Source of the DNA: Scheffersomyces stipitis CBS 6054
Lineage: Eukaryota; Ascomycota; Pichiomycetes; Serinales; Debaryomycetaceae
DNA: 64,000 bases
Assembly: GCF_000209165.1 (NCBI RefSeq)
Contig: NC_009042.1
Location: 2,480,001 to 2,544,000, forward strand
Direction of reading: 5' to 3'
Shown in pieces: positions 34,089 to 52,711 of this stretch. The notes under the pieces are model-generated. The model was given only the letters and a program-made list of their open reading frames with translations, was not told where the DNA came from and made no database searches. How positions within the stretch are numbered: the first letter of the stretch is position 1; the number at the start of each line of letters is the position of its first letter. The translations under genes were made by a program, and so were the position numbers.

Positions 34089-35696
34089 CTAAGTGGATCT
34101 TGTTCTACCATCTACGAATGGAAGAGATTCAGAGCTGGCGTAGCGATCATCTTGAGTATGCTTGATTTGCTCTTTGTCATTCGATTGCTTCAGTTTACGA
34201 ACAAGAGAAAGATCCATTAACTTTTCTTTCCTTAGGTTCTTGTCAATTACGTAATCTGGTTTCTCGGGACTGTAGTCACAGTCAATGCCAAACTTTGCAC
34301 ATCCAGCACAGATAGGACGGACCTCGTCACATTTCAAATGCTTGATACGACAAATCCAACAACCGTTCTTGGATCTTGGTAACAATCTTCTCCGAGTGTA
34401 TTTCTTGGGTTTTGGTGGAGTACCATAAGTGTCATCAATCAGATCTTTGACTTTCTTTGAGGTCTTCCTAGACTTTTTAACTACCTCTTTTAAGGTTGGG
34501 TATGTCTTCCTTCTCGGTGTTTCAGAAGAGACGTACGAAGAAGCTGAAGAATCTGAATTGTGACGGAATATGTCCATTTGTGGTAAACCTGCACTCGAAA
34601 TAGGTGTAGGTCCCGGGCCCATTGAATACGTAGTAGATCCGTTTGATACTGATCTACTCTTGTTAGGGGTCAGGTGTAGTTCCATCGCCTTATATTTATT
34701 GCACAATGGGGACATTTTTGGGGACAATTCACCTAATGGGGAATTGCTAGCATTAGAGATGTGGGTAGCCAACATCAAGCCTTTTTTGTTGTTGATAGAA
34801 GCTGCAACGTTGTTGTTCAATCTAGTGATGGACAGTTTCTTACTAATCTTATGGTCTAAGGAATGCGAGCTTGTGGAGGATGGCAATGGTTTATACATTA
34901 GAGGAGCTGGACCTCTAACGTTGTATTCTTCATTTGTTGAAGTTGTCGTGTTGTTAACAGACGAATTAGGAGTGAAGCTGGTATCAGACAAGGTTGGTGT
35001 GTAGACATCATTGATAGTTGGCGTATAGGGATACATTCCAAAATCGTTCATTGTCTGGTATGCTGTAGAAAAGCTTCTCAATACAGTTTCCTGGTTTGGT
35101 TGGAAGGTGGTAACGGAGTTGATGGAACTATCTTCAATCTCTCTGCTGTTGTATATCATCGAGTTAGGAATCGAGTCCAATGAGTGGTTCCCCAATTCAA
35201 GGTTGTACATCAAGTCAACTGACTGAGGCCCTGTAATTGAGTTATTGATTAATTCCGGAGTCGAGTCGATGTTCAATTTGTAGAGTGGTTGGTTTCCTTG
35301 CCCTTGGCTACTATTATGCAATGAGTTAGCAGACATGGCAGCCTGAGGGTTTGAAAATATAGAATAGTGTGACAGGCTGTTAAAGAACTCGCCGTTGTTG
35401 TGAGGTGTGCCCGAGCCATAATTCTGGAATTGAGGAGTCGGAGCCAAATTGGAGAGGAATGCAGCATTGGAAGAAATATTGGGTGCTCCGCTGTGTGCTA
35501 TGGCCATTGGAGGCACTGGGATGAAAGGGGCATTACTATCGAATTGATAGAGGTCCTGATCATTAAATCCATAGTTATTTTGGTTGAATCTTATGCCCAT
35601 GGTAGGGGAGCTGGAGGCGATGGATGACTCCAATTTGATGGTATCCTCGTTTTCAAAAGTGGTGTTAGGAGAATTGCCTCCTAGTTGATGTTCCAT
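34089..35696 (-). CDS. UME6-like Zn2Cys6 transcription factor with C-terminal zinc cluster
   Basis: A 535-residue factor. The first 400 residues are Ser/Asn/Thr-rich. A basic block ([25 protein letters not shown]) precedes the zinc cluster at about 440-468: [11 protein letters not shown] then [11 protein letters not shown], six cysteines with the standard spacing. Immediately after comes [20 protein letters not shown]. The C-terminal position of the cluster, the GCWIC opening and the following KPDxVxD...K block are the arrangement I recall for Ume6. Ume6 represses meiotic genes in S. cerevisiae and drives filamentation in Candida. Most fungal zinc-cluster factors carry it N-terminally. It is much shorter than typical Ume6, so it may be a paralogue. 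It shares a 4.3 kb intergenic region with the first BEM1-like gene. Confidence 0.6.
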
Positions 35697-37801
35697 GAGA
35701 ATTTCGTCGAAGTTGGGGACTGTGTGGGTAGCAGTAGTTGGTTTAGGAAAGGAAAGACCGTTGGGTGCAAAAATGAGTGAATACCACGAACTTCTTGTTT
35801 AAAGACGAATAATGATGAAGGAAACTGGAAACATATAAACAGTGTGACAGGTTACACTATTTGGAGAAGGTATTTATACCAATTTATATAATAGTACCCT
35901 CTTGTGTGAACTGTCTGAGAATATTAGGGTAGACTTTTGGTAGGAATTCTCAAACTTTTTGGTTAGAAGAGTATGCAGACTATATGTAGTTGATGGGGTA
36001 TTTTTTAGTTCTGAAACACCAACAAGAACAACAAGTCAGTAGTCAAAAGGTGATGATTATGGAGTGTAAAGGGGGGATGGGGTTGTCAACTACGATAGTG
36101 GCCAATCAAGGTGACACTGACCAAATATATAATATTTGAAACTTTATTGGATATGTTGTCAGAAGTTAGCTAATGTAACCCGGCCAAGTTGCGCACTATC
36201 CAAGCCTCTCAGGAAATTAGCTCCAAGTACAGCGTTATATCGGCCAAGAATAACAGTCTTATTACTCTGGGAAGAATGATCAGAACAGCTTCAAAAGATA
36301 TTGGTCTCTGTTTGAATTGCTTTTGCGGTCGGAGGGTCCTCTAGGGCAACCGTTTGTGTGAGTATATATTATTATTGCCAAGCTCTAGATACCTCAAGGG
36401 TAAATTGGAACCAATTTTCTATTCTTGGTTACAGCTCTGGAAACTGACGATTCTCTTGAGGTATTGGAATAGATCGGGTAATGATGATGGTATATGTCTT
36501 GGAGGGTGGTTCTGTCAATTAAAAAAATTAAGTCGTTATCCGAAGGTTAAACCTCACCTTGTCAAACCCTGTCTAAGCACTTCCCAGGTTCTGGCGAAGC
36601 TGTCTTACTACCAATTGCAAGAAACAGGTGCTTATTCCTGACTTGATAAAAAATAGAGGAGAAAGAAAGAAACCTAGTCAGAAAGAAAAGTCAGGTTAAT
36701 ACAAAAAAAAATGAAGATACGAACATCCCCTAAGATTATTGAAAAGTGAAAATCTGGCCGAGCTAGATTTGGTATAGTGAATAAAAAAAATTATTGCGAA
36801 GATAAAGAGTGGAGACAATACAATACCAGTACTTTTCTACCAAATTACGTAAACAAGAAAAGTTAGGCATGTACGGTATTGAAATCCTATGTAAATCAAG
36901 AGACTACACCCCAATTAGCTCATTTCCAGGAGATGGAAACAATGTAAGTTACAAAAATTAGACTTCAATAATATTTCGATTCACCGACAGTTGCCTTGAA
37001 TGGAGCGATGGAGTGCTCGAGATTAGCACCCTACTAATGGTGCTAAATCGGTGCTACATGACAAAATATTACTAATAATATTGAGAGTACTTCTATCATC
37101 AGACAACCGCTGGTTGGATGCTCCTTGAATCATTGGAATGTAGAATTGTATGAGAAGACTTTTTACGAAAGATGCGGTGGATTTTGGTGTCTTTCCGCAG
37201 CATAGCCATATGGACGTCTACTAGAATGCGCCATGGGAGGTTATGTTATTGAAAAACAACGTGAATGGACAACAGATCCCTTTGCAGAACGCATGAGACA
37301 ATGGACATCACATACCTAACCTTTATCAATACAGGAATTCTTGTATCTTGGGTGGAACATTTGCAAAATGGTTTTATTAAATAGTATGTACCTTAAAGCA
37401 TCCGCATGAAAAAAAAGATTAATATAATGCATACCTAAAAAATACAGTTTCCACTGGTAATGAAGATTAGATGAGAAAAATTATGTATACATGACGCCTA
37501 ACGCGCGCTCGTGAAAAAAATTGCGGTAATGAGGTGTGGAGGTAAGAGCATTTTAGGAATATGAGCTTTTTAACCTTATGGCCACGAATCCCACGTTAGA
37601 GGCGAGTATGCAATCCAAAAAGTGCATTGAGCTAGACCTTTTGAAACCTCTGTTGCGCTGATGATTGGAATCTGTGATAATTTCTCCAACTTCACGAAGA
37701 TTCTCTCCCACAATTGCAAATGGCAATTGTACCCGCATGATGCAGTAACTTATTTTTCAACTGTGTTTGTACATGTTTTGACATTAGCCTAGCCATCTTT
37801 A

Positions 37802-37818
37802 CCCAGCCCTCGGCTGGG
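37802..37818. repeat. Perfect hairpin CCCAGCC-CTC-GGCTGGG
   Basis: A 7-bp GC-rich stem with a 3-base loop in an otherwise AT-rich gene-free region. The flanking bases do not extend the stem. It could be a structured part of a long leader or non-coding transcript, or chance. Confidence 0.5.
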
Positions 37819-38671
37819 AAATTAAATCATACCTCGTCCTGCTTCCATATCCGCCGAGAAAATCCTCAACCAATAGCTATTAGCTGGCAATTCAAGTATC
37901 CACCTCTGTTCCTCAGAAGAAAAGGAAACACTAGATACAATTATACCCTATTCAGAGTCCGTTAGCACTAACCATTTCAAGAAGCTGGTGGTGCCATCCT
38001 TTTGTCCACAGAATTACACCCACTCCTATTATTGGTCCTCGTCAGAACTTGTAAATACAGTACTCCAATTTTTACTAAAGCAGAAAATCATTTTAAACCC
38101 AAACCGTTAGCTTGCATATATTGTCTACACGAAGAAAGGAGTGCATTGTTTTTTTTCCGACCTGCCAAAACTTCATATTACTTTGCTCCTGAACAAAAAG
38201 AAGACAACGACCCCTCAGATGCCACGGACAAATACAACAATAGCCAGATTTGTTTATTCGGTGTGATCACAGAGCAGTACGCTATACAATTCTATTGTTC
38301 AGCTCAAGCTTTGCCACCAGTTTTTCGGAAATTAACATGCCATCTTGTCCAATGGATATTCTTGTAGCCATGACCCTATAAAAGTTGTCCAAAATAAATT
38401 CGAGACACTACGAGCACTTTTTACGTCTTATCTCCTATGCATTGGCATATTTCTTTTTAACAATATAATATTTTATCGGCAAATATCGTACAATCGACCC
38501 AATTGCCAATTACAACTGGGGAGAGATAGTCTTCCAATCGGTTTTATCGCTGCTGTTGTCAGGCTTTAGTGGTTATCAAAAACGTCTTTATAGAGCGACG
38601 ATAGGTTTAAAAAGCTTGAGGCGTGGAGAAAAAATAATGGCAGTTGATGCTAGCCGATGTGAGAATGTGCA

Positions 38672-38679
38672 TCACGTGA
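38672..38679. promoter_or_regulatory. E-box octamer TCACGTGA
   Basis: Perfect palindromic octamer 1.36 kb upstream of the first BEM1-like gene. A bHLH factor site is plausible; occupancy is unknown. Confidence 0.3.
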
Positions 38680-40041
38680 CATAGTGAAAATTTTTTGACG
38701 GGCACTTGGGCATGCGAGTAAAGAAATCAAAAATCTTACCATCTCTCTTCTTGTTTCTTTCTGTTTTCCTCATTACATATATCTCACTTCCGGATTACCA
38801 GCGACACTGATAACTCCTCCGTTTAGTTAAGCAAAAATGGCTGGAAGGAGAACAAATGTCACCATCATTTATATAATCCAGATTTAATGTGAATTTTCTA
38901 ATTCATACCCTGTTAATATTTGGTTCGCGTGATGGGTACATCGTAATCTAGTCCGTATTGTTGTGGAACAAGCTTTTGTTCCCCTGTAGAACGTAGTGGC
39001 GCTACCTAATGGAATTGCCGAAGCTTGTAGAATGTCAAACGTAGCTTGCATTCTGAAATGCATATTAGAGTTTGCCCATGAATGTAATTTAATGTTCTCG
39101 TAGTTTTATGAATGAAGTTTTAGCTAAAGGGTTTACAGGATCTGAAATGCATACTCTGTCTCAGGTCCGAAACGATCTGCGGCTGGGATTTCATTGAATT
39201 TGATAAAAGGGAAGTAGAGGCGGATCCCAGCTTACTGCTGAGGCAGGATTTCAGACGTACTATTAGTTGAGGAAGCGACCTGCTTTCTTTTAGCAAAATG
39301 GATGGGTTCTGAAGGCACTGATGCTTCAAATTGCAGGGGCTATCTGTCATGGCGGTTAATAGTAACAGTACGGGTAGTGCTTGGTGACTTTTCGTAAAGT
39401 GGAAGGCACAGAACGAAAAGAATATTCTCTTTCAAGGTGAAACAGTACATGCGAAAAACTGGTTGCCCAAAAATGTATTACAGTGGAATGTACCATTCCA
39501 CCAGCTAATACTCACCTCACCTGGAGATAGAATCAGGGAGGTCTTACAACAGCTAACATGACACGAACCAACAATGGGGTCGACACCCCTTCCTCTATCC
39601 CTTTCGTATAGCACCCTTACCCAGTTGCGCTGCCGTTCCTTCTGTAATTCCAGGAACACCACTTTGGACAACAGACAGCCAATCACAACAATTGCTGGTG
39701 TCGCGACAAAATGAAGCTACGCAGAAAATAATTCTAAACAGCCAAAACAAACAATCAATTTTTATCTGGTCCTGTAGCGATAACAAGAAAAGAGAACACC
39801 ACCTGCATAATTATCCTTTACGTGTGGCGGGCCATAGTTAAGCTTGCTAAGTGGAACAGGAACGTAGGGCTGTCCCCAAAAGAGGGTGTATCCAGCCCTG
39901 TGAGGGAAACTTCACGTCGTTTGTATCCAAGATAATAAAAGTTATTTTCTTTATCTTTCTCTTCTTCACAGCTTGTTAACCATTTCTTCAGATTTTGTGC
40001 CCAACAACAATAACAATCCATTCAACTGAACAAGACTCTAC

Positions 40042-41901
40042 ATGGCGAAAACCAAGACTACATATGTATCGACAGTGTCGTCGATACTGGCACCTGTACG
40101 GTCCTTAACCATTTCAAAGCCCAGTCCGAAAGAAAATGTCGAATCGAGTTTGCGAGCCAATATTATTCTCGTGTGCAAGTATGCGTTCAAGGCTGAAAAC
40201 GACAATGAGCTTACAGTGAGCAAGGGCTCCATCCTTAAGCTATTAGATCGTCCGGGGAACGGCTGGCTCTTGGTGAAATTTGTCGATAGACTAGAGGAAC
40301 CGGGCCTTATTCCTGCTCTGTATGTCGATATTGCAGTCAACGACCAGCACAATCCAGTGACGTTAGTTTGGCTTCAAAGCAGTAGCAAACAGTACTCGCA
40401 AAACGACTTCATCGAAGAGCAGAAATACTTGAACATGCAATTTAAATCGGTGTCCTCGCCCTTCTTGACCATTAACAATAGGGCATTTCCCACCTCGGTG
40501 TCTATCTCCAACTTCTTGCTTTCGGAACAGCGATATTGGTACAGAGTGGATGTCGTATATTCAGACCATTCAAAGGCATACCTATGTCGTTACTACCAAG
40601 ACTTTTACAACTTACATATTAAATTGTTGGGTCTAATGGCTGCCAGTCTGCAAATAGTCAGTGAAGAATTGAAGTTACCCAAATTGCCGGAACCACTCCC
40701 TACCAACCATGACGTGGAAGATTCATCTCAAATCACATCACTCTTGAAGAGGTGCAATGCTTTAAACATTTATGTAAACAAGTTGATCTTGAACAAGTAC
40801 TATCAAACGTCTCAAGTGTTGTTAAATTGGTTGGATTTAAACTACGACGACTTGCCAAGTTTCGCTCTACCAACTGATGCTGAAGTCATGACAAATGATC
40901 AAATCAATGAGAAAATATTGCCAAATTCTATTAACGTTGTGAAGGAATACTACAGGAAAGAAGAGGTTGCTGAATCTCAAGCGAAGTTGCCTCAAAGAAC
41001 GAAATCTAAGAATATCTACAATAACTACCAACAGGCAAGAGTACCACCTTCTTCAGCTACAAGACTGTTGTCGACTAAGTCAGACGGTGCAAAACGTACA
41101 CCCTCTACTTCTAACACGTCCAAAAATAACATCTCGAAGAATAGCATTTCAGCTCCACTAGTGGCCAACCAATCGTACGCTAACGGATCCAATGATAACT
41201 ATTCACATGCCATAACTCCGAACCAGTATTCCCATGGTAGTAATTTTAACACTAGTCAACCAAATGCTAATCAACCAAATGCCAGCAACAATAAAGCTAA
41301 TTCTTATTCAAACGGTAAAAATGGCTCATCTTATGTTAACAGCGCTAACACCAGCGTCCAAGATACAAGCTATGCAAATAATAGTGTGAACACTTCTATG
41401 AATAGTTCATCGAGTACACCTACAAATGTGCAACCACCGCAGATGGCGACCACTCCTCAGTTCAGGAAAACCAATTCACCAGGATACAATTCTCCGTCGT
41501 ACAAGCACAAGATTTCTCCTCCAAAGAATACACATTCTCCGTATGTGTCTAATTCTCCTACATATCCACATATTCCCTTATCAAATAATAGTCCTGAGGT
41601 CAAATACGGTCAAACTTTACCGCCCCTGCCTCAAGAATTGTTATCTCATTCAGTTAGTAGGAACCTGTTTATCAAGTGCAAAATTGTAAACTTCAACAAT
41701 GAAATTGTTGCATTGAAGTTGAACAAGCAGTCAATCAAGTCCATTAATGATTTGAAGGTTTTGATAAAACAGAAGATTTACTTCACCAAGTTGTTCATCA
41801 AGTTGCCTAATTTAAACAATTATGAGAGTATCGACAATGTGAATTTCAATATAAATGAGTTCTTGAGGTTCAACGACAAAGTTATGCTTAAGATCAGTTG
41901 A
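40042..41901 (+). CDS. BEM1-family polarity scaffold A: SH3-PX-PB1
   Basis: A 619-residue adaptor of the Bem1/Scd2 family. One SH3 domain lies at 41-98 (IILVCKYAFKAENDNEL to GLIPALYVDIAV). A PX domain is at about 151-275 with RYWYRVDVVYSDHSKAYLC and RYYQDFYNLH. A Ser/Asn/Pro-rich linker spans about 330-540. A PB1-type end is at about 545-619 (LFIKCKIVNFNNEIVALKL). Canonical Bem1 has two SH3 domains. The lone SH3 here resembles the second one, which binds PAK kinases and Cdc42; the first is missing. The PX basic residue R183 is kept. PB1 of Bem1 binds Cdc24 (family knowledge). It is followed on the same strand by two related genes. A separate canonical BEM1 elsewhere in the genome is likely but unseen here. 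Confidence 0.82.
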   Translation: MAKTKTTYVSTVSSILAPVRSLTISKPSPKENVESSLRANIILVCKYAFKAENDNELTVSKGSILKLLDRPGNGWLLVKFVDRLEEPGLIPALYVDIAVNDQHNPVTLVWLQSSSKQYSQNDFIEEQKYLNMQFKSVSSPFLTINNRAFPTSVSISNFLLSEQRYWYRVDVVYSDHSKAYLCRYYQDFYNLHIKLLGLMAASLQIVSEELKLPKLPEPLPTNHDVEDSSQITSLLKRCNALNIYVNKLILNKYYQTSQVLLNWLDLNYDDLPSFALPTDAEVMTNDQINEKILPNSINVVKEYYRKEEVAESQAKLPQRTKSKNIYNNYQQARVPPSSATRLLSTKSDGAKRTPSTSNTSKNNISKNSISAPLVANQSYANGSNDNYSHAITPNQYSHGSNFNTSQPNANQPNASNNKANSYSNGKNGSSYVNSANTSVQDTSYANNSVNTSMNSSSSTPTNVQPPQMATTPQFRKTNSPGYNSPSYKHKISPPKNTHSPYVSNSPTYPHIPLSNNSPEVKYGQTLPPLPQELLSHSVSRNLFIKCKIVNFNNEIVALKLNKQSIKSINDLKVLIKQKIYFTKLFIKLPNLNNYESIDNVNFNINEFLRFNDKVMLKIS

Positions 41902-44341
41902 GCTGCTCAAGATCTACACTTACTTTTCCATTGACGACTTCACGATTTCAGTTCAATTCTTAACGTTGTTATTATTATTACTCTATTATACTACATGATG
42001 GTCCGTGGTAGTCTGACCATTTTCTATTAATTTAAAGACTGTGTTGGCAAGAAAACCATAAGGATTGCTTTTGCAATTTTCAGTATTGTACAAATATATA
42101 ACTCTAAATACAAATTTAATGTGCTAAGAAATTACAATTGTGCGTAGAGGGGTCAGAGAATCTTCAAAGATAATAGAATACGATATCAATCTGATCAAAT
42201 GTATAGCACAAACGCCAATACACGTACGCGTCATTCGCAAGCAAACATAACACGATAAGAACGATTCTTTGCAACAATAACCCTCGAAAATCTATTGACA
42301 AAAAGACAATGTGTGAGAAAGAAAATTTTCTGTGCTCCTGAAACGAGATCTGGCAATTAGCTGAGAATGGACAAATACGTTTTCTACATACATATTCATG
42401 GTTTTTGCAACAGCACAGCAATGAGAATTTTGCATGTGATGTGAGTGAGGAGATGACCATTTCGAATACATTAATATCACCAGGGACCTTAGCAGAAATG
42501 TCTATAGAGAGAGGTGTATTTTCGGGCGACTCATTATGACTAAAGCCGGCTTAGCGAACGTAGCAAATAGTAAGAAACAGCTATAATCGACAATCAAAGT
42601 TCAATTAGACTATAAGAATTGGAACAATAAAATACAATGCCCTTGTTATGGCATAGATTTCATGTCCATGGGCAAAGTCCGATTAATGCTTGCGATTCAA
42701 GCAAGTAATGTAGTTAAATGACAGCATTTTCCTGTTCTACTGCACTAAATATCAAAACAATGTACGAAGTGAAATGAGCTAAGAAGAGCAATGCAAATTG
42801 CTGTTGTTGTTTCAAGACTAAGGTGCCCTCTCACAGCATTAGCTTGTGGTGGGCCGTAATAAGCACCAACTCCAACAAGGAATACCCGACTTAGGGTCCT
42901 CCCTGCAGGTACTAAAACTAGCTAAGGCAACTCTGTACAGTTAAGATAAGTCGTGCTCCTGCTTAAGGAAGGGCGGAGAGACTAGTTTAAGGTCTAAAGT
43001 TCCCCTTCCAAATTAGACAAAGCACAAATTTCCTCCAAGTAACGCTGTAGACCTTGTTTAGTCCGCCTCCTCTTCCGAATTCCCCTGCCTCTAATTCTCA
43101 CAGTGTCGACTGTAAGACATGTTGGAGAATTTTGCCAAAATTGGTTCAATATTCTTGAAAATACTACGTTGTTCAGAAAGTAACAACATGGATTTCACAA
43201 GTTTTCTAAAAGTCAACATCATTTACTTCAGATTTCGTAATCTTAGTCTGCCGATCTATGTTGTTCTCGATTCGTTAATCAAGTGGACAAAAAGAACCTT
43301 CTTCAAATTGCTTAGTATACAATTATATGAGGGTTCGTTTCATCTTGACATAAAAAATAAGAAGCCTACAGAGCTTAACTAAAAAATCAGGTTTGATGTC
43401 ACCCCAAATGCTAATTCAAGGTTCGAAATTTCTACGTATTCATAACAACACATATAGGTCGGAGTTCAGCTCTTCCAAATTCAAATTTAGGGTCAACTCA
43501 AAACAAAGGTAGTCTTTCTTAGTCGGATGGTCCTTCTTTCGTTTACTTCAACTGCATTCAAAGAATACGTTACCATATCAAAATATGTATATTTTTTTGG
43601 CTAGAGTAGAATAATAATAAAGGCTGTATTGATTCAGGCTTTTCCGCAATTTTGATTTTTTCTGTAAAGTGAGTATCCCTAAGCTCTTGAAGATCCGCCC
43701 AATAATACTTCCTCACTCTCAGTGTATACAATCCTCTATAAGCTAGAATTTTATGAGGCATAACAATTGTTGTCAATTCTATTCAGTTGGCAATTATGCA
43801 CATGACAAGCGCACAGGGGGAGTTGAAGTAATGCTGAAAAACAACAGCCTTTGCTTGCAATCGTCCCCAATACAAAAAGAGGCGGGAGGAATACATAGAG
43901 GCAAGACTCCTTAGCCCAGAAACCTTTTGGATTTGTATGGGATGTAGAAATTGCATGAGGAAAAAATTAAGCTTTAGATGTGCAGTTGGCTGCAGGTGAC
44001 GGCATAATTTTTAATGTTCCCAATGCGTCTTGTTTGTTTTATTTTTGATAACCTCAATTCTTTGACAACATGAAGAACAAAAACCTTTTTATACACGATG
44101 GATGCCTCCGAAACCAATCCCAGATTTTTTTACAAACGTAACCTTCGAATTTGTTTATCTTTGGAGTTATTTGCTATTTACTAATAGCGTTTATTACTAA
44201 ATTCTTCAGAGAGTCTCTCCCTTAGCTCACAGCTGCAACTTAACTTTGATATTTCAGAGTTAAATAATATCGTACAAGAATTATTCTGCGAACAAAGCCT
44301 GAAGTATTATACTCGAGGCTGTAAATAAGCTCTAAATCAAC
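41902..44341. other. 2.4 kb gene-free region between BEM1-like genes A and B
   Basis: No convincing gene. Small ATG-started frames (for example 43119-43382, 87 codons) have no recognisable features. A GC-richer patch near 42840-43090 with repeated TCCGCCTCC/GGGCGGAG-type pieces stands out but is not interpretable. Length suggests a complex promoter for gene B or decayed sequence. Confidence 0.45.
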
Positions 44342-46378
44342 ATGTCTGCTAGTTTATTCAGATCCAAGCAGTTCAAGTCGAAGAAAAACCTTAAGACCCT
44401 TACTATTTCGGGTCCTCTTTCGCTTTCGGCTGCTGCTGCCATGGCCGCTGAACAAAACGTCTCCCCAAAACAACCTCCTACAGTGGCCTCTTCGAAGAGA
44501 AAGGGTAAATATCCAGTTATTGTCTTGGTTGCCAAGTACAAGTTCGAAGCTGAAAACCCAGAGGAATTGAGCATAGACGTTCGTGACTACTTAAAGTTGT
44601 TAGAAAGAGAAGGCAATGGTTGGTTAAAGGTCCAGATGTTAGAAAAGAATGACAAGGTTGGTATCGTGCCAGCTTCCTTTGTTGGCATAGCAGTCAATGA
44701 TATAGTGAACCCTATTTCAATTGAATGGCTCAACGAATACAAACTGGACAACGACTACGACAGCAGCCTGGAAGAAGTCGAAAGTCGCTCTCTCGTCGAC
44801 CTGAAGGACCAGACCACTATTGCAAACGAAGATCCATTCCCAGTATCTGCCTGCGTTGCTAAGGTTTACCTGGATAGCACTAACAAGTACTGGTACAGAA
44901 CCAGAATGACAATGTCCACCAACGAGGATATCTATGTTGGTAAATGTTACCAACAGTTCTACAAATTGCATACTGCCTTGGTGCTGAAGTATCCAGAGGA
45001 AACCTTACCCAAGTTGCCATTACCAGTGCGAAGCTCTTCTGTCCTGGGCAACAAGCGCTACTCAACATTGAAATACGACAGAAAGTTCCTCAAGGACTTG
45101 AACGCACTTAGCGAGGGTTTGAATTCTTACTTCAACAATTTGCTTTTAATCAGATCCATACAAACATCTTCCGAAGTGTACTCTTTCATTTTTGATTCAC
45201 CATACGTGAAATTATCTCACAAAGAAAGCAATATTAAAGAAGACGACAATATGATGGCGGAAGTTGTGCATAAGCTTGCTCCAAAATCTATTGACATTAA
45301 CGAACTCTTGAGCTCCACAGGATCCTTTTCAGCAACTGAACCTTTACCTCCGTTGAAGACTTCATTATTGACTAGCCCAAGAAAACATTCATCCATAATC
45401 GACCCTAACATGAAGTGTTCAGCATACATCCAACAGAAGGAAAAGAAGATAGTCAACTCCACCAGTAATAACACCTTGGTGAGTTACTCATCCCTTATTG
45501 ATGGGTACGATGACAGCGAGGAAGAAAAGAGCAGCGGAAAGGAAGACAGCTATGCCGAGTCAGAGGAATCTAAAAACGATTCCATCGACACAAAGGCTAC
45601 CTCCTTCGAAGATGAATTTGAAGAAGCCAAAGACTTCAAGGCTCACCCTTATGAAGAGTTTAAACCAAGCAAACCAATTGCTGACATCAAGAGTAATTCT
45701 ATTTCAAATTTTTCTTACCATAGAACTCCTAGAGATTCCAGCAAGTTTGGGCACTCGTATTCGAACTCTGGCAGTGACCTCGACTCATTGTTCTCTCACA
45801 AAGGTAGCTCGCCAACTACCCCTATACTAGCAACAAGTGGGTTTCTTCCGGATGCTGAAGTGGGAGGTAGTCCTGCAACCCCTTCTACTCCAATAATTGA
45901 AGAACAAGAAACCTCATCCATGCCGCTCACGTCCTCGTACCTTTGGAAGGAGGCCCGCAAGGCAAGAGGTAGATCGGATACGAGCCTGAAGTACGCATCT
46001 GGCCAGTTCAATGTTACACAATACATGGATTCCATAGAAGCTCCTGGTTCTTCCACACTCGGTCAATTTCCATCCAAGAGAAAGGACTCTGCAACCGTGC
46101 CCTTATGCAATGCTAATGACTACATCAAGATTAAAATTTATTTGAACAACAGGGAAGATGATATTGTGGCCTTGAAAATCAAGAGAAACAATCTTATTTC
46201 TATACTTTACTTGAAGAAGCTTCTTTCGTTCAAGATTTACAAGGATTACAATTTAATCAACCACTACAAGTTGCAGGCCAATGAGAGTTCCATTGATGAA
46301 TTAGATGATACCCAATTATTACAATATATCAAATCCTTCTCCAAGGTGAGCTTGAGATTAGTTAGACTTAGAAGTTAG
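44342..46378 (+). CDS. BEM1-family polarity scaffold B: SH3-PX-PB1, diverged
   Basis: A 678-residue paralogue of the preceding gene. Both share an N-terminal LTIS-P motif before the SH3. SH3 is at 59-116 (VIVLVAKYKFEAENPEEL to VGIVPASFVGIAV), PX at about 167-290 (NKYWYRTRMTMS, then CYQQFYKLH), an acidic/Ser linker at about 395-590, and PB1-like at about 597-678 (YIKIKIYLNNREDDIVALKI). Where gene A and Bem1 have Arg in the lipid-binding CRYYQDFYN motif, this protein has Lys201 and Cys202 (GKCYQQFYK). The linker carries many Ser-Pro and Thr-Pro sites (SSPTTP, SPATPSTP). Probable role: polarity or signalling scaffold, inferred from domains only. Confidence 0.82.
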   Translation: MSASLFRSKQFKSKKNLKTLTISGPLSLSAAAAMAAEQNVSPKQPPTVASSKRKGKYPVIVLVAKYKFEAENPEELSIDVRDYLKLLEREGNGWLKVQMLEKNDKVGIVPASFVGIAVNDIVNPISIEWLNEYKLDNDYDSSLEEVESRSLVDLKDQTTIANEDPFPVSACVAKVYLDSTNKYWYRTRMTMSTNEDIYVGKCYQQFYKLHTALVLKYPEETLPKLPLPVRSSSVLGNKRYSTLKYDRKFLKDLNALSEGLNSYFNNLLLIRSIQTSSEVYSFIFDSPYVKLSHKESNIKEDDNMMAEVVHKLAPKSIDINELLSSTGSFSATEPLPPLKTSLLTSPRKHSSIIDPNMKCSAYIQQKEKKIVNSTSNNTLVSYSSLIDGYDDSEEEKSSGKEDSYAESEESKNDSIDTKATSFEDEFEEAKDFKAHPYEEFKPSKPIADIKSNSISNFSYHRTPRDSSKFGHSYSNSGSDLDSLFSHKGSSPTTPILATSGFLPDAEVGGSPATPSTPIIEEQETSSMPLTSSYLWKEARKARGRSDTSLKYASGQFNVTQYMDSIEAPGSSTLGQFPSKRKDSATVPLCNANDYIKIKIYLNNREDDIVALKIKRNNLISILYLKKLLSFKIYKDYNLINHYKLQANESSIDELDDTQLLQYIKSFSKVSLRLVRLRS

Positions 46379-47158
46379 ATATTATGTTTATTAATACAGA
46401 TTTATGTGTCCAAATTATGATAACCCAGGTAAATACTTTTATTGTACAAGCTGGGGTTTCAACAAATAGAAGAAGAAGGGAGACCAGCAAATGGACTGGA
46501 CTATGGAAGTATCCTTCCAATTCAAGGCAGTGTTTTGGTGGAGAGCTATTGCTATTTTACAACTTTAAGATGCATAACTTGTCCCCAATATGGAAGAACC
46601 CTGTCCAAGTTTGCAGTCCACGTTGAAACGTCAAGAAGTTGGCTGCCTCATTTCTGCGCTTGATTGTCTTTTCTAAGTAATAATTGTTTACAGTTGGTGA
46701 GTTAACATTCGAGGCATATGCGGGAGGACGGATTTACTGGTGCAGACAATAGAAACTATGCATCAATATTATTTAGGAACCTGCACCCCAATTGGGTACT
46801 ATGTAGGGTTTGGTCGCACTATCACAAACCACCTGCAAGTTTTACATTATTTTTGAAAAAATATGCAAGGCCTTGACTAATAGTTTGTTATCATTAAGTC
46901 CAGACTGTTAATTCTACCACCATCGTACATCATTTTGGGTTGTACTAACGTTGGTAAACTCCTTATTCTTAGGCTAATCATTACACCAAAGCGGGTTATT
47001 CCAGTGCTAAAATAGTAATAATTGAACCTGCTCAAAACCCTAGGGAGTCGATTGCATTTATTGTACGTCAAATATAACTAGATTAATTTCTTACATCGAC
47101 AAGTTCTGAAAACTTTGACAGAAAAAAAGACAACATAAATATATACAACAACAACAGT
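46379..47158. other. Intergenic between BEM1-like B and the PB1-only gene
   Basis: 780 bases. TCGCAC at 46814-46819. No gene is seen; short open frames lack features. Confidence 0.4.
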
Positions 47159-48760
47159 ATGAGCAAAGTTAGACCTATTAGTTGTTATGAAACTCCACCT
47201 TTGGATTCCTCATTTGTCTTCGATGACGATGACGACGAAAGTATCTCTCGTGATGGGTTGTCTACAGATGAATTGGGCGAGACGCCTCCATCCTCAGTAG
47301 CATCAACTTCCAACAGCCCCGACCTCAACCAGAAGGCCAGGGTTGGATTTCTTCGTAGATTTTCAACAAATTTAAACAAGAAACTTTCAAAAATATCATT
47401 ACAACCAATCCCTGCATCACCAGTAAAGAAGATTAACGATGCTGAGACCACGTCACCCACTAGAGAAGTAACTTTCCATGATGCACCTTCGTCGCCAACT
47501 AAAGCTATTGAAATACCCTCAAGTCCATCGAAGGAAAAGAGAATGTCTTCCATACTTGATCCGCCTATTGTCTTGCGGGAAAGAAGCTCTAAGTCCAAAG
47601 AAAAGGCAAAGACTGCCCATAGACACAGTGTCTACGGAGGAGCTTTGTTTGATTCCAAGATCTTAACAAGTAAACTTAGTAGAAAGGACTTCAAAAAGAC
47701 AATAGCGAAAGAAGAAACAAAGGGTGAAGTAGGAAACCAACTGGTTGGATCCATCAACATAGAAAAGAAATCTACCGACAGCGAAGATACAATAACCGGA
47801 AGCATCTCACAATCGCCAAACAAACGAAGGGGAAAAGGATCCTCGGTCGCCGAACTGACAACTATCGAAGATGATGCTACAGCACATGATCATAACGAGA
47901 TGGCTAATTTTACAGGAACAAAGAGGTCACTTAAGAGATCACCGGCAATTGAAGAATTAGCTGCTTTAAGCAAATTCAAAGATCCAATTGACGGCTCTAC
48001 TAAAATCGAGAATAATTCTACCGAGTCTGATATTTCGTCTGTAGACTCCAAGAAATCACCTATGGAATCAAGAAAACCTTCCATTGAGACGACATCTTCT
48101 GTCGGTTCGGTTAAACATTCCTCAAAGGTGTCAAATTCCGCCCAGTTGGCAACTCCAAAGCAGCAGTTGACAAGCAAAGCGGAAATACAATCTGAATCAT
48201 CTACTCCAAAGATTAACAATCTCTTTTCTACCCCAGTGCTGATGGCCGAAACAAGTTTAACTGAAACATCTGTTGAAGAAGATTCGTTTGTTTCTCCCAA
48301 CAACACACAGGCTTCAAGTGCCACTTTCCCAGCATACACGTCAAGACGTGACACACTTGCATCGAGAGAATCATTGCCCTTCTTCCAAAAGAAGAGCGAG
48401 CAAACACTTAAACTTAATATTTACCTCGAGGAGAAGACAGAGGATGGAGTGGTGAAAGAACCGGACAATTTGGACTTCATAGCAGTCAAGTTGAGAAAAG
48501 ACAGATTGCGAAACTTGAACGAGCTTGTGAATGTGGTCATATTCAAGCTCTTGAATAAGAAACAGGACATCAACTTGAACAACATGCGATTACTTATATT
48601 CTTCAAGAACGAGTCGTTAAGCCCGATAGTTCTCAAGAAGTCGATCCAAGAGGTTGAGCCTGAAGTTCCAGCAGGAGATAAGTCTAGCCTTAACAACGAC
48701 GACTTGTTATTGGAATATATCATGATGAAGAAGAAACTCTACATCAAAGCACAAATATAG
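47159..48760 (+). CDS. Protein C of the BEM1-like cluster: disordered, PB1-like C-terminus, no SH3 or PX
   Basis: A 533-residue protein. The first 410 residues are Ser/Lys/Glu-rich and disordered. They include an acidic start (FDDDDDES), a basic patch (VGFLRRFSTNLNKKLSKIS, about 61-79) that may bind membrane, and many SP/TP sites. The C-terminal 120 residues resemble the PB1 end of the two preceding genes: TLKLNIYLEE...DFIAVKLRKDRLRNLNEL aligns with YIKIKIYLNN...DIVALKIKRNNL of gene B. The module ends in the same way, with basic strand KKKLYIKAQI. I infer descent from the same family with loss of SH3 and PX, but convergent PB1-like folding cannot be excluded. Confidence 0.7.
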   Translation: MSKVRPISCYETPPLDSSFVFDDDDDESISRDGLSTDELGETPPSSVASTSNSPDLNQKARVGFLRRFSTNLNKKLSKISLQPIPASPVKKINDAETTSPTREVTFHDAPSSPTKAIEIPSSPSKEKRMSSILDPPIVLRERSSKSKEKAKTAHRHSVYGGALFDSKILTSKLSRKDFKKTIAKEETKGEVGNQLVGSINIEKKSTDSEDTITGSISQSPNKRRGKGSSVAELTTIEDDATAHDHNEMANFTGTKRSLKRSPAIEELAALSKFKDPIDGSTKIENNSTESDISSVDSKKSPMESRKPSIETTSSVGSVKHSSKVSNSAQLATPKQQLTSKAEIQSESSTPKINNLFSTPVLMAETSLTETSVEEDSFVSPNNTQASSATFPAYTSRRDTLASRESLPFFQKKSEQTLKLNIYLEEKTEDGVVKEPDNLDFIAVKLRKDRLRNLNELVNVVIFKLLNKKQDINLNNMRLLIFFKNESLSPIVLKKSIQEVEPEVPAGDKSSLNNDDLLLEYIMMKKKLYIKAQI

Positions 48761-49494: not shown

Positions 49495-50859
49495 ATGGCC
49501 GATATCTTTAACATGGATGGCTACGACGAGGTCGGTGGGCTCAGTTCGAGCTTCAAGAACTCGGTCACAATAACAGCCCCGGAACCGGAGTTAAACTATA
49601 GGATGCTTGATCCCTCCTCCTCCTCCGACGAGAACGAGCCTGAAGAGTACCATCCGCGAGATGAACATGCGAACGTGGTGGCAGAATTGCCCATTCCGAT
49701 TCCCGCCAGAAATAGAAGGAAAAGCTCGATTGCATCTTCGTATGAAGTGGGAATCAGGGAGTCGTATGTCGCATCTACACTTGTAGTTAACAATAGTCCT
49801 TCCATAGGATACAAGCCGAAGCTAGCAGACTTCGAGCCTTTGAAAGTGTTGGGGAAAGGCTCTTATGGAAAAGTCCTCCTTGTGCGAGAAAGATCCACGG
49901 GCAAGTTGTTTGCGCTGAAGCAATTGAAAAAAGCATCGTTGATCATCAACGAAGATACAAACGAGATACACGAGGCAAACTACAGAAGAACGCTTAACGA
50001 AAAGACCATCTTGGAAAAAGTCAACCACCCGAACATCGTAAAGCTATATTACGCCTTCCAGGACAATAACAAGGTGTATTTGATCTTGGAATACTTGGAT
50101 GGCGGAGAGCTTTTCCACCATTTGGCTCTTGAAAGATTCATGAGTGAAAAAAATGCTTGCTATTATATAGCACAGATGATATTGGCTCTTCGATATTTGC
50201 ACTGCAACTTGAAGGTAATCTATCGAGATTTAAAGCCCGAAAATTGCATGTTGAATTCAAATGGTAATCTTGTGTTGACAGACTTTGGTTTGTCGAAAGA
50301 ATCCTCGGGAGACAAGAACCACTCAATGACAGGTACAGCACAGTACATGGCACCGGAAGTCATCAAAGGGGAACCTTACGACTACTCTGTCGATTGGTGG
50401 TCATTGGGATGTGTAGCGTTCGATCTTTTGACAGGATCCCCTCCATTTTCAGGAAACAACAATAAGAAGATCATGGAGAAGATCTTGTCGAGTAAGAAGA
50501 CGTTGAAGTTTCCATTCTATCTAAGTCTTGATGCCAAGGACTTCTTGAAGAAGTTGTTGCAAGTCAATCCCGAAAAAAGGTTCAACATAGACGGAGATTT
50601 TGACAAAGTAAAAAGGCATAGATTTTTCAGATACATTAACTGGGATGATTTAGAAAACATAGAGCAAAGTGAGACAATTCCACCCATTCTCCCCATTATC
50701 ACAGACCTGGTGTTGGCAGAGAACTTCGACAAGGACTTTACAGAAATGGCTTTCACACCACAATCACACGACACCGGTAGAGACATCTTACATGTGAACG
50801 GGTTCACATACACAAACTCCAACTACTTGTCACTTCAAAGTCAGTTCAAACAAAATTAG
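49495..50859 (+). CDS. YPK3: YPK3-like AGC family protein kinase (S6-kinase type)
   Basis: 454 residues with a kinase domain from about 112. Visible parts: glycine loop GKGSYGKVLLV, VAIK-type Lys in FALKQLKK, catalytic YRDLKPEN (an AGC-type YRD), DFG in LTDFGLSKE, and APE in QYMAPEV. A short C-terminal extension ends with a hydrophobic-motif-like VNGFTYTNSNYL preceded by a turn-motif-like TPQS. The insertion in the early lobe (NEDTNEIHEANYRRTLNEK) resembles Ypk3 and Psk-type kinases. Ypk3 phosphorylates ribosomal protein S6 under TORC1 (S. cerevisiae). The activation loop reads NHSMTGTAQYMAPE in place of the usual TFCGTxEYxAPE. The N-terminus holds a RRKSS site. It converges with the next gene, 71 bp apart. 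Confidence 0.75.
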   Translation: MADIFNMDGYDEVGGLSSSFKNSVTITAPEPELNYRMLDPSSSSDENEPEEYHPRDEHANVVAELPIPIPARNRRKSSIASSYEVGIRESYVASTLVVNNSPSIGYKPKLADFEPLKVLGKGSYGKVLLVRERSTGKLFALKQLKKASLIINEDTNEIHEANYRRTLNEKTILEKVNHPNIVKLYYAFQDNNKVYLILEYLDGGELFHHLALERFMSEKNACYYIAQMILALRYLHCNLKVIYRDLKPENCMLNSNGNLVLTDFGLSKESSGDKNHSMTGTAQYMAPEVIKGEPYDYSVDWWSLGCVAFDLLTGSPPFSGNNNKKIMEKILSSKKTLKFPFYLSLDAKDFLKKLLQVNPEKRFNIDGDFDKVKRHRFFRYINWDDLENIEQSETIPPILPIITDLVLAENFDKDFTEMAFTPQSHDTGRDILHVNGFTYTNSNYLSLQSQFKQN

Positions 50860-50929: not shown

Positions 50930-52711
50930 TCATATGGGAGTACAAATAGCAAACCAGGCAAGCAAGAGGAGTATGGCAAAGAGTGCTTTGATTATTATGA
51001 CAAACTTGAAATTGAACCTATTCTCAGGGTTCTTCAAGAAGTTTATGGTGAACAACTTATTCACTATTACCAAACTGGCGAGAAAGTAAATAGGAGTGAG
51101 AGAACCAGATTTCATGAAAAAATTAGCAAATGTGAGCAACGAGACGCTTTCGCAGCAAATGCTGGCTGTACAATCAAGTAGAAAGTACAATAATGGCATG
51201 TCCAAAGTCAAGATACCGTATGTCTTGAAACACGAATCAACTACCAACTCTGGACGGGTTTTCAAACAGAAGTCAAAATAGTAGTTTACAAAATACATGA
51301 AGTTGTAGTACCTCTCGATTGAGTTAGAGTGTATTATGCTGGATTGTTGTTGGACAGGCTGTTGCAATCTCGAGTCTACCGAATCCCTGTGTGGATACTG
51401 TTCTTCATCATTTAGTCTATATGTCGACAAACGTTGCTGTAAAATTGGGGAAGCATCCAGGAGATGGGCAGGATCGTAATTGTCACGAGAGAAGAAAGGT
51501 GGAGCGAGCCATGAAAACCAGGAAACTGGAGATCGAGTGTAATTGGAACGTCCAGGAACATATGGGAGACAAACTGTAGATACACTCAGTTCGGTCCTTG
51601 GCTTAGATGTTGATGGTGTATGATGTGATGGATGTTGCGGTTGCTCTGGTTGACCACCGTCGTCGTCAGGTATATGTCCTTCCGAATGCCTGTAATCAAA
51701 ACCAGCACCAGCGCCAAATTCGATTTTGGGTCCACCAGGAAACTTGTATTTAAAGTTTCCACCACCGCCACCTCCCCAATGGGTGTCTTTGTTAGAAATT
51801 GAGCTGTTGTCATCTTCCTCATCAATATTTTCGTGACAGTACGAGACTTTGGATAAAGGATCTTCGTTGTCGAGGGCAGCATAGTTTTCTTGGTTAGTCT
51901 CCAAGGCAGCAATAGCAGTAGCTGTGTTTAAGTGGTATGTGTTTTTGGGAGAAATAGAATATAGTTTATCTACAAAATCGTATGCTGACTTCTGCTTGGC
52001 TAATATGGAATGCGATTTGGAGCTCTGCAATGAGCTTAAGGTGTTGATGCTTTTGCTTGCAGCCATGGGCGTGCTGCTCAGCGACTGTGACTTCTTCATG
52101 TTGAAAGAAGATGGAAAGTGCTTGATGGACAACTTGCGTTCATCAGCAAGGGTGTCATCAGAGTTTGTCGAAACGATGGATTTTCTGTTTCTGTCATACT
52201 CTTCATTATTCAAGATGCTCTGGAGCAAAGACTCGACTTCTTCCAGGTTTTCCAACCTGGTTTTGTACTTGTCCTGATTGATCCAGAGGTCGTACAACTT
52301 GTCAAAACGAGGAATGGAAAAAAATGTGTAATAATTATCCATGTCATTGTTGACGGTGCTTTGTATAACAAATGCACAAGCTAAGCTTCTATACAGCAAC
52401 ACTCCAACACGAGACAACCAGAACACAAACAAGAAACGTAAAACTTCTTCTATAAGCGGGTAGTAGAAGTTGTAGAACAGTTGTTCGAGCCTTTGCTTGA
52501 ATTTTCTGTTCATGCCTACTGTGACACCATAGAAAAATCCTTGTAAAAGAAGAGGCAAAGCAAGAAACAACAAGGTCAATATGTACAGCTTACTATTGGC
52601 AATCTGGTTCTCCTTTACAAGAAGTAAAGGCCACATGCGGACAGCCGTGGCGCAGAATATATAAGCTGCGAAGTACCATGTTCTCTTGTAGACGATGGGA
52701 TCCAGCACCAT
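50930..52711 (-). CDS. Unrecognised polytopic membrane protein with large central cytosolic loop
   Basis: I do not recognise this 593-residue protein. Three hydrophobic segments lie near the N-terminus (about 11-32, 40-65 and 85-118) and three near the C-terminus (about 500-525, 535-556 and 568-593). Between them is a hydrophilic region of about 350 residues. It is Ser-rich with phosphorylation-type repeats (SLSSTP, SKSHS) and contains a Gly-rich block WGGGGGGNFKYKFPGG followed by EFGAGAGFDYRHSEGH and a Pro/His stretch. The third segment starts PLIEEVLRFLFVFWL; paired Glu in a membrane helix is seen in PrsW and Aph1-type proteins, but no other protease motif could be confirmed. It is divergent from YUH1. 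Confidence 0.75.
   Translation of the reverse strand: MVLDPIVYKRTWYFAAYIFCATAVRMWPLLLVKENQIANSKLYILTLLFLALPLLLQGFFYGVTVGMNRKFKQRLEQLFYNFYYPLIEEVLRFLFVFWLSRVGVLLYRSLACAFVIQSTVNNDMDNYYTFFSIPRFDKLYDLWINQDKYKTRLENLEEVESLLQSILNNEEYDRNRKSIVSTNSDDTLADERKLSIKHFPSSFNMKKSQSLSSTPMAASKSINTLSSLQSSKSHSILAKQKSAYDFVDKLYSISPKNTYHLNTATAIAALETNQENYAALDNEDPLSKVSYCHENIDEEDDNSSISNKDTHWGGGGGGNFKYKFPGGPKIEFGAGAGFDYRHSEGHIPDDDGGQPEQPQHPSHHTPSTSKPRTELSVSTVCLPYVPGRSNYTRSPVSWFSWLAPPFFSRDNYDPAHLLDASPILQQRLSTYRLNDEEQYPHRDSVDSRLQQPVQQQSSIIHSNSIERYYNFMYFVNYYFDFCLKTRPELVVDSCFKTYGILTLDMPLLYFLLDCTASICCESVSLLTFANFFMKSGSLTPIYFLASLVIVNKLFTINFLKNPENRFNFKFVIIIKALFAILLLLAWFAICTPI

What the first reader, a model, noticed from the sequence alone, without database searches (positions are those of the whole stretch)
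40042..48760. Tandem cluster of three Bem1-family genes, two with a single SH3 (SH3-PX-PB1)
Three consecutive plus-strand genes share a PB1-like C-terminus. The first two share SH3, PX and an N-terminal LTIS-P motif. Canonical Bem1 has two SH3 domains; both proteins here keep one that most resembles the second (PAK/Cdc42-binding) and lack the first. This looks like local duplication and specialisation of the polarity scaffold in this lineage, possibly forming alternative Cdc24/Cdc42/PAK complexes. Bem1 domain roles are established; the specialised complex is inference.
Basis: partly seen in the sequence, partly recalled or inferred. Interest (0 to 1): 0.8.

Follow-up and report, generated by a model that had tools for sequence, protein, structure and literature searches.

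The report
Ancient tandem Bem1-like yeast scaffold pair
Two neighbouring genes in a CTG-clade yeast belong to an old relative of the cell-polarity scaffold Bem1 that keeps the membrane-, partner- and GEF-binding parts but lacks the recognisable part that reads active Cdc42, so they may steer Cdc42 activation without Bem1's self-reinforcing loop.

Summary
g1 (40042-41901) and g2 (44342-46378) are intact SH3-PX-PB1 proteins and paralogues of each other. A two-SH3 BEM1 and a CDC24 lie elsewhere in the genome. g3 (47159-48760) has no SH3 or PX, and its PB1-like end is only suggestive.

The duplication is old. Of 113 family proteins examined, 111 have one SH3, two have no match and none has two. 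The family is split from 12 Bem1-type proteins with bootstrap 100; g1 and g2 are two clades within it. Five contig lengths recur among the hits, each with one g1- and one g2-clade protein, which suggests old linkage.

Beyond the missing first SH3, the Cdc42-GTP-binding CI segment is not recognisable (0 of 121 against 12 of 12 Bem1-type). g2 has Lys for the PX Arg (22 of 22 aligned). Each paralogue has its own linker motif.

Best reading: Bem1-derived Cdc24 adaptors uncoupled from Cdc42-GTP feedback, later split into two specialised forms. Relatedness is firm; function is inference. A 2015 paper already noted one extra Bem1 paralogue each in C. albicans and A. gossypii.

The parts
40042..41901 (+). 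g1: SH3-PX-PB1 protein, 619 aa (table 12), single ORF
40105..40122 (+). g1 N-terminal L-x-I-S-x-P motif (residues 22-27, LTISKP)
   Evidence: I24 and P27 nearly invariant in 53 family members
40162..40338 (+). g1 SH3 domain (residues 41-99), Bem1 SH3b-like
40489..40833 (+). g1 PX domain (residues 150-264); PX Arg R183 kept; Bem1 PX 2v6v ranks first in fold searches
40996..41034 (+). g1-clade linear motif RTKSKNIYNNYQQ (residues 319-331) in the low-confidence PX-PB1 linker
   Evidence: linker pLDDT mostly under 55
41668..41898 (+). g1 PB1 domain (residues 543-619), basic, no OPCA motif
   Evidence: through relatives
44342..46378 (+). g2: SH3-PX-PB1 protein, 678 aa (table 12), paralogue of g1
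44399..44416 (+). g2 N-terminal L-x-I-S-x-P motif (residues 20-25, LTISGP), preceded by basic residues
44522..44686 (+). g2 SH3 domain (residues 61-115)
44912..45190 (+). g2 PX domain (residues 191-283, Pfam match); PX Arg replaced by Lys
45467..45508 (+). g2-clade linear motif (residues 376-389, NNTLVSYSSLIDGY)
   Evidence: 15 of 22 g2-clade proteins
46121..46375 (+). g2 PB1 domain (from residue 594), basic, no OPCA motif; not modelled here
47159..48760 (+). g3: 533 aa, no SH3, no PX; one relative found (S. xylosifermentans); membership of the group unproven
48389..48757 (+). g3 C-terminal segment (residues 411-533), possibly PB1-like, unproven

Best explanation
g1 and g2 belong to an ancient family related to, and separate from, Bem1 (shown). 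The family keeps an SH3 with its W-P-Y ligand groove, a PX domain and a basic PB1 without OPCA, and lacks the first SH3 and any recognisable CI segment (shown; the PB1 by way of relatives and a model). Inferred: the PB1 holds the OPCA-bearing PB1 of Cdc24, the SH3 holds proline-rich ligands (PAK/Boi type for g1; less certain for g2), and PX plus an N-terminal motif place the complex at a membrane. With no CI the scaffold could not read Cdc42-GTP, so it would put or activate the GEF where its own docking sites dictate rather than where Cdc42 is already active: a feedback-uncoupled Cdc24 adaptor that works beside, or competes with, Bem1. In an ancestor of the CTG clade it duplicated in tandem. 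The copies then specialised: g2 has Lys for the PX lipid-contact Arg and a drifted SH3, and each copy has its own conserved linker motif. The Candida/Lodderomyces group probably later lost g2 (inferred from absence among hits).
For: One SH3 and one PX in 111 of 113 family proteins (P0004-P0116, P0004 being the window's own g1), none with two; the other 2 have no SH3 match. Tree: family against 12 Bem1-type UFBoot 100; g1+g2 100; g2 100; g1 75 (96 without P0108). CI HMM: 12 of 12 Bem1-type found in leave-one-out (24.6-82 bits), best of 121 family members -0.5 bits, shuffles -0.6. PDB SH3-CI 2kym aligns over SH3 plus CI in own BEM1 (147-256) but only over the SH3 in g1 (41-98). SH3 W and P invariant in 80 of 80 aligned sequences. 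First-strand PB1 Lys (K480 equivalent by my own count) is K or R in 27 of 31 g1, 22 of 22 g2, 15 of 15 basal, 12 of 12 Bem1-type. OPCA motif in this genome's CDC24 and CBS-PB1, not in g1/g2/g3. PX Arg: R in 57 of 58 aligned non-g2, K in 22 of 22 g2 (loose count on all rows: R in 80 of 84 g1, K in 4). g1 motif strict in 54 of 84, looser form in 74 of 84, 0 of 22, 15 and 12 elsewhere; g2 motif 15 of 22, 0 elsewhere in its tighter form. Domain roles in S. cerevisiae: PMC7409549 (passages); fragments unable to mediate mutual recruitment still rescue bem1-null cells by relieving Cdc24 autoinhibition: PMC10579396 (passage).
Against: No binding or phenotype data for any member. CI could be diverged rather than lost: one Trp (g1 W110) aligns with the CI Trp, and the model puts helices at 108-112 and 120-136 behind the SH3. 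CTG-clade PB1s are diverged: no direct PDB or Pfam hit for g1/g2, and the second Lys of strand 1 is Glu in 5 of 31 g1-clade sequences. g2 SH3 scores slightly better as SH3a (18.5 against 15.3 bits). Four of the 12 Bem1-type yardsticks show only one SH3 with my HMM (P0133, P0134, P0135, P0140), some perhaps truncated, so SH3 number alone does not divide the groups. Partners could be proteins other than Cdc24 (the CBS-PB1 protein also has OPCA). The linker patterns were written after looking at the sequences.
Confidence: 0.5

Rival explanations
1. The family is a competitor or sink rather than an activator: g1/g2 tie up Cdc24 or PAKs away from Bem1 and dampen or delimit polarity, for example at sites of previous growth.
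For: Same retained binding modules without CI, which could act as a dominant-negative form of a scaffold.
Against: No direct data. In S. cerevisiae the Bem1 PX-PB1 fragment alone complements bem1-null cells (PMC7409549, passage).
Confidence: 0.2
2. The PB1 partner is not Cdc24 but another PB1 protein (the CBS-PB1 protein, or g3 next door), so the proteins scaffold a different pathway.
For: CBS-PB1 carries an OPCA motif; g3 is adjacent and has a weakly PB1-like end; CTG-clade PB1 sequences have diverged.
Against: g3 shows no OPCA pattern. The basic PB1 residues and the SH3-PX-PB1 set match Bem1, whose known PB1 partner is Cdc24.
Confidence: 0.15
3. They are NADPH-oxidase organiser-like proteins (p40phox/p47phox analogues).
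For: Same three domain types; one source names a relative 'Phox-like' (P0006); p40phox and p47phox PX rank 3 and 4 in the structural alignment.
Against: Best sequence matches of g1 and of the basal profile are Bem1; domain order differs from p40phox; Nox and NoxR are reported absent from the C. albicans genome (PMC2121648, passage).
Confidence: 0.05
4. Decaying redundant copies of Bem1 without a specific role.
For: Long low-confidence linker in g1; no SH3a or CI; apparent loss of g2 in some yeasts.
Against: Open reading frames with conserved SH3/PX/PB1 residues and paralogue-specific motifs across the clade.
Confidence: 0.05

Closest known systems
Bem1 / Scd2 (canonical polarity scaffold)
   Different: No protein with two SH3s among 113, no recognisable CI in 121, own N-terminal LxISxP motif, separate clade with UFBoot 100; a two-SH3 BEM1 coexists in this genome
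CaBem1-2 and AgBem1-2, the extra Bem1 paralogues of C. albicans and Ashbya gossypii (PMC4466140, section 5 and passages)
   Same: An additional Bem1 paralogue in a CTG yeast; probably the g1 lineage (inference: I saw no sequences in the paper's text, and no hit is named C. albicans)
   Different: The paper lists one extra copy per species; the parts I read mention no tandem pair and no CI; its authors could not tell common origin from independent duplication
p40phox (NCF4)
   Same: PX, SH3 and PB1 in one protein
   Different: PX at the N-terminus and an OPCA-bearing PB1 (PMC7051960 and PMC2121648 passages; full order recalled); g1/g2 order is SH3-PX-PB1 with no OPCA

Membership tests
Canonical Bem1/Scd2 | Two SH3 domains | tested here: not met
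   One SH3 each in g1 and g2 in the genome-wide search; 0 of 113 family proteins have two. Of 12 Bem1-type yardsticks 8 show two and 4 show one with the same HMM
Canonical Bem1/Scd2 | SH3b-type second SH3 | tested here: inconclusive
   g1 38.8 against 8.7 bits for SH3b and SH3a; g2 15.3 against 18.5; SH3b better in 109 of 121, all 12 exceptions (one a tie) in the g2 clade
Canonical Bem1/Scd2 | CI extension (Cdc42-GTP binding) | tested here: not met
   HMM: 0 of 121 at E<=0.001, 12 of 12 Bem1-type in leave-one-out; regex 0 of 120 against 13 of 13
Canonical Bem1/Scd2 | PX domain | tested here: met
Canonical Bem1/Scd2 | C-terminal PB1 that binds Cdc24 | tested here: inconclusive
   PB1 by relatives' profile and model topology of g1; no direct Pfam or PDB hit; binding not testable here
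Single-SH3 relatives of Bem1 (grouped here) | LxISxP - one SH3 - PX - linker - PB1, no CI, one clade | tested here: met
   g1 and g2:
Single-SH3 relatives of Bem1 (grouped here) | g3 as a third member (SH3 and PX present) | tested here: not met
   No SH3 or PX; PB1-likeness not significant by E-value
p40phox | PX first, then SH3 and PB1, with OPCA in PB1 | tested here: not met
NoxR/p67phox | TPR repeats | tested here: not met
   No TPR family listed for g1 or g2 at E<=1

The most novel reading that the evidence does not exclude
Many budding yeasts, though not S. cerevisiae by the 2015 catalogue, carry a second, ancient class of Cdc24 scaffold that cannot read Cdc42-GTP, so Cdc42 can be activated at instructed sites without Bem1's positive feedback; CTG-clade yeasts split it into a tandem pair with different membrane and docking codes, giving a three-scaffold polarity system.
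Probability: 0.3. Interest if true: 0.75.

Novelty: new variant of a known kind. Interest (0 to 1): 0.52.

Why it matters
Bem1's link between Cdc24 and Cdc42-GTP is the textbook positive-feedback loop of polarity. A conserved family that keeps the Cdc24/ligand/membrane parts but has no recognisable Cdc42-GTP reader is a natural separation-of-function set. S. cerevisiae has no extra Bem1 paralogue in the 2015 catalogue (PMC4466140). Two questions become testable: how Cdc42 is steered without feedback in other yeasts, and whether the extra Bem1 copies share one origin. The authors of that paper left the second open for C. albicans and A. gossypii; CTG-clade and Wickerhamomyces/Cyberlindnera members now group as one family. 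No hit of mine is named Ashbya or Eremothecium.

Tried and rejected
Recent, lineage-specific duplication: rejected by the tree and by recurring contig lengths with one protein of each clade. A missed first-SH3 exon upstream: not seen in the six-frame SH3 search. g3 as a Bem1 paralogue: hhalign was weak (probability 0.7-21.7), E-values were not separated from decoys, shuffles favoured it with the g2 and all-family HMMs but not with the basal one, and the model was too poor to use. The homologue search with whole g3 found only its own protein and one of S. xylosifermentans among 7988 scored candidates; its low-complexity N-terminus may swamp the word search, so g3's spread is unknown. CTG-clade PB1 in the PDB by sequence: no hit. 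The structure searches with the whole g1 model did not list a PB1 chain among the rows shown; one domain fills such lists, so this says little. The viral structure library gave nothing useful. In-genome searches with the g2 PB1 and the g3 C-terminus found only themselves. Papers: seven searches were answered. Their listings showed no tandem single-SH3 Bem1 pair and no CI-less Bem1; Bem1 with Scheffersomyces stipitis gave 0 papers. The library lacks most subscription journals.

Papers seen: PMC4466140 outline, section 5 and passages; passages only of PMC2121648, PMC7051960, PMC7409549, PMC5578929 and PMC10579396; the rest as search listings.

Rows dropped: the tree used 31 of 84 g1-clade, 22 of 22 g2-clade, 15 basal and 12 Bem1-type sequences, the last cut by hand before SH3b; P0117-P0120 (three SH3s, no PX, Sla1-like), P0130-P0132, P0143, P0145 and P0146 were left out. 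PB1 HMMs left out nine g1-clade proteins that seemed to lack the C-terminus. The SH3a/SH3b HMMs used 8 Bem1-type sequences, the CI HMM 12. Supports were read again from the tree without re-rooting, because re-rooting shifts labels.
Full report
What is there. The window is C2:2480001-2544000 of an 8-contig, 15,441,179-base genome. The best named relative of g1 is from Scheffersomyces xylosifermentans. Size, contig number and CTG=Ser reading fit Scheffersomyces stipitis; the species name is my recall, not a tool result. Three plus-strand ORFs stand at the stated places. With table 12, g1 is 619 aa, g2 678 aa and g3 533 aa. g1 and g2 each carry one SH3 and one PX by Pfam; g3 has no match above a Pfam cut-off. 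g1 and g2 are paralogues (152 bits, 1e-39 without composition correction; about 120 bits with it). In the lists of the six-frame genome searches, SH3 and PX occur together at three places: g1, g2 and a 617-aa two-SH3 BEM1 on contig 1. CDC24, with a PB1, is on contig 7. A g2 query finds g1 (3.8e-25), then the BEM1 SH3 region weakly (0.0144) and a chance-level match (3.74).

The C-terminus of g1 and g2 is a diverged PB1. Pfam and the PDB do not recognise it in g1 or g2 alone. The chain of evidence, all unless noted: the g1 HMM hits the four g2 proteins tested (1.6e-5 to 1.9e-4); the g2 HMM hits three of four g1 proteins (6.5e-9 to 5.4e-7), the fourth at 0.063. The g1 HMM hits basal relatives at 5e-4 to 0.029 (four of seven listed) and the g2 HMM two of seven at about 7e-4. 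Neither lists BEM1. The basal HMM hits this genome's BEM1 (2.2e-8), and g1/g2 proteins only weakly (0.0017 to 0.66). The basal profile hits S. cerevisiae Bem1 PB1 1ip9 (3.8e-6). Pfam PB1 matches 12 of 53 family members at E<=1, best 7.3e-6. The AlphaFold model of g1, built on 53 family sequences, shows b-b-a-b-b-a-b over residues 543-618 at pLDDT about 93-97. The basic residue of the first strand is kept in most members. OPCA patterns are in CDC24 and the CBS-PB1 protein but not in g1, g2 or g3, as expected for a Bem1-type PB1 that would bind Cdc24.

g3. For its C-terminal 125 residues, none of 1000 shuffles reaches the real score with the g2 HMM and with the all-family HMM, both for g3 and for its S. 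xylosifermentans relative. With the g1 HMM 9 and 1 shuffles do, and with the basal HMM 107 and 56. In a search sized like a proteome the listed E-values are 0.095 to 1.2, with a decoy ORF at 0.14. The low-confidence model shows a PB1-like order of strands and helix. I leave g3 as possibly PB1-like, not as a family member.

Family and age. The profile search with g1+g2 gave 117 proteins from 7993 scored candidates, of which P0004-P0116 are Bem1-like and P0117-P0120 are not. By HMM count 111 of the 113 have one SH3 and one PX, and two have no SH3 match. A second search with seven relatives of Wickerhamomyces/Cyberlindnera type gave 32 proteins: further single-SH3 members, then Bem1/Scd2-type proteins of other fungi. 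Of the 12 Bem1-type sequences used below, 8 show two SH3s with the same HMM and 4 show one (P0133, P0134, P0135, P0140); some of these look truncated at the N-terminus, and all 12 have CI. In the maximum-likelihood tree of 80 sequences and 394 columns the single-SH3 family is split from the 12 Bem1-type sequences with UFBoot 100. Inside it come one clade of 14 Wickerhamomyces/Cyberlindnera-type sequences (99) and a Babjeviella protein next to g1+g2 (99). g1+g2 has 100, g2 100 and g1 75, or 96 without the divergent P0108. Where the family joins Bem1 is less sure: if the root lies among the other fungi, it is sister to the three Bem1 nearest this yeast's own (support 71), which would put its origin inside the budding yeasts. 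So the duplication that made g1 and g2 predates the CTG-clade radiation sampled here.

Linkage. In the table five contig lengths recur (36343, 123318, 21508, 15332, 13219 bases), each with one g1-clade and one g2-clade protein. I read this as the same contig and so as continuing linkage; the contigs themselves were not seen. Eleven named Candida/Lodderomyces species have g1-clade proteins and none has a g2-clade protein; the search is word-limited, so this suggests, but does not prove, loss.

What is missing and what is kept. In S. cerevisiae, SH3b binds PAKs and Boi proteins, its CI extension binds Cdc42-GTP, and PB1 binds Cdc24 (PMC7409549, passages). A CI HMM recovers all 12 Bem1-type sequences in leave-one-out tests (24.6-82 bits) and none of 121 family members (best -0.5 bits; shuffles reach -0.6). 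The solved SH3-CI structure 2kym aligns over SH3 and CI in this genome's BEM1 but over the SH3 only in g1. One aligned Trp after the SH3 may be a remnant. The SH3 ligand-groove W and P are invariant in 80 of 80. SH3b beats SH3a as the better model in 109 of 121; the 12 exceptions, one a tie, are all among the 22 g2-clade proteins and include this window's g2. So 'most resembles the second SH3' is right for g1 and open for g2.

Signs of specialisation. The PX Arg that contacts the phosphoinositide (R58 by recalled p40phox numbering) is R in 57 of 58 aligned non-g2 sequences and K in 22 of 22 g2; a loose count over all rows gives R in 80 of 84 g1. In the PX-PB1 linker the g1 clade has R-[ST]-K-S-K-N-[IV]-Y-N-[NH]-Y-Q-Q: the pattern Y[NQS]xYQQ is in 54 of 84 and the looser [YF]Nx[YH]xQ in 74 of 84, both in 0 of 22 g2, 15 basal and 12 Bem1-type sequences. 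The g2 clade has a pattern around [ST][LIQ]xS[YFLI]xSL[ILF]xxY in 15 of 22 and in none of the others. The patterns were drawn up after looking at the sequences; shuffles of the tight forms give 0. The N-terminal LxISxP motif has two or more basic residues just upstream in 17 of 17 g2 and 10 of 11 basal cases but in 17 of 75 g1 cases. It could be a kinase docking site, which is speculation.

How it most likely works. Shown: the domain set, the missing SH3a and CI, the basic PB1, OPCA-bearing possible partners in the genome, and paralogue-specific motifs. Inferred: g1/g2 hold Cdc24 by PB1 and a proline-rich ligand by SH3, and dock by PX and linear motifs. Without CI they would not close the Cdc42-GTP loop. 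[quoted passage not shown] I put this at 0.5; a competitor role is the main rival.

Prior knowledge. Verschueren et al. 2015 (PMC4466140; section 5 and passages) report one extra Bem1 paralogue each in C. albicans and A. gossypii and could not tell common origin from independent duplication. My tree supports common origin for CTG-clade and Wickerhamomyces/Cyberlindnera members; no Ashbya sequence was identified among the hits. The seven answered paper searches listed no description of the tandem pair, the missing CI or the paralogue motifs. The finding is therefore a new variant of a known kind: firm as a family, unproven as a mechanism.

Noticed in passing
window 38769-38943 (+): H/ACA snoRNA snR5 (Rfam RF01252, 122.3 bits) sits in the 4.3 kb gap between a divergent Zn2Cys6 transcription-factor gene (34089-35696, -) and g1.
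   Followed up: no
window 35697-40041 and 41902-44341: Long upstream gaps (4345 and 2440 bases) before g1 and g2, against 780 and 734 bases before g3 and the next gene; they may be large regulatory regions.
   Followed up: partly
window 40996-41034: A strongly conserved g1-only linear motif, R[ST]KSKN[IV]YN[NH]YQQ, in an otherwise low-confidence linker; its partner is unknown.
   Followed up: partly
window 49495-50859 (+): A protein kinase gene (Pkinase E 1.3e-72, sub-threshold Pkinase_C) directly downstream of g3.
   Followed up: no
L001 (C1:3131489-3134764): A protein with a C-terminal PB1 bearing an OPCA pattern, the only Pfam PB1 hit besides CDC24; I call it CBS-PB1 by recall of the fungal family. 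A possible alternative PB1 partner.
   Followed up: partly
window 50930-52711 (-) and 56537-58882 (+): Two large ORFs (593 and 781 aa) with no Pfam match at E 1e-4.
   Followed up: no
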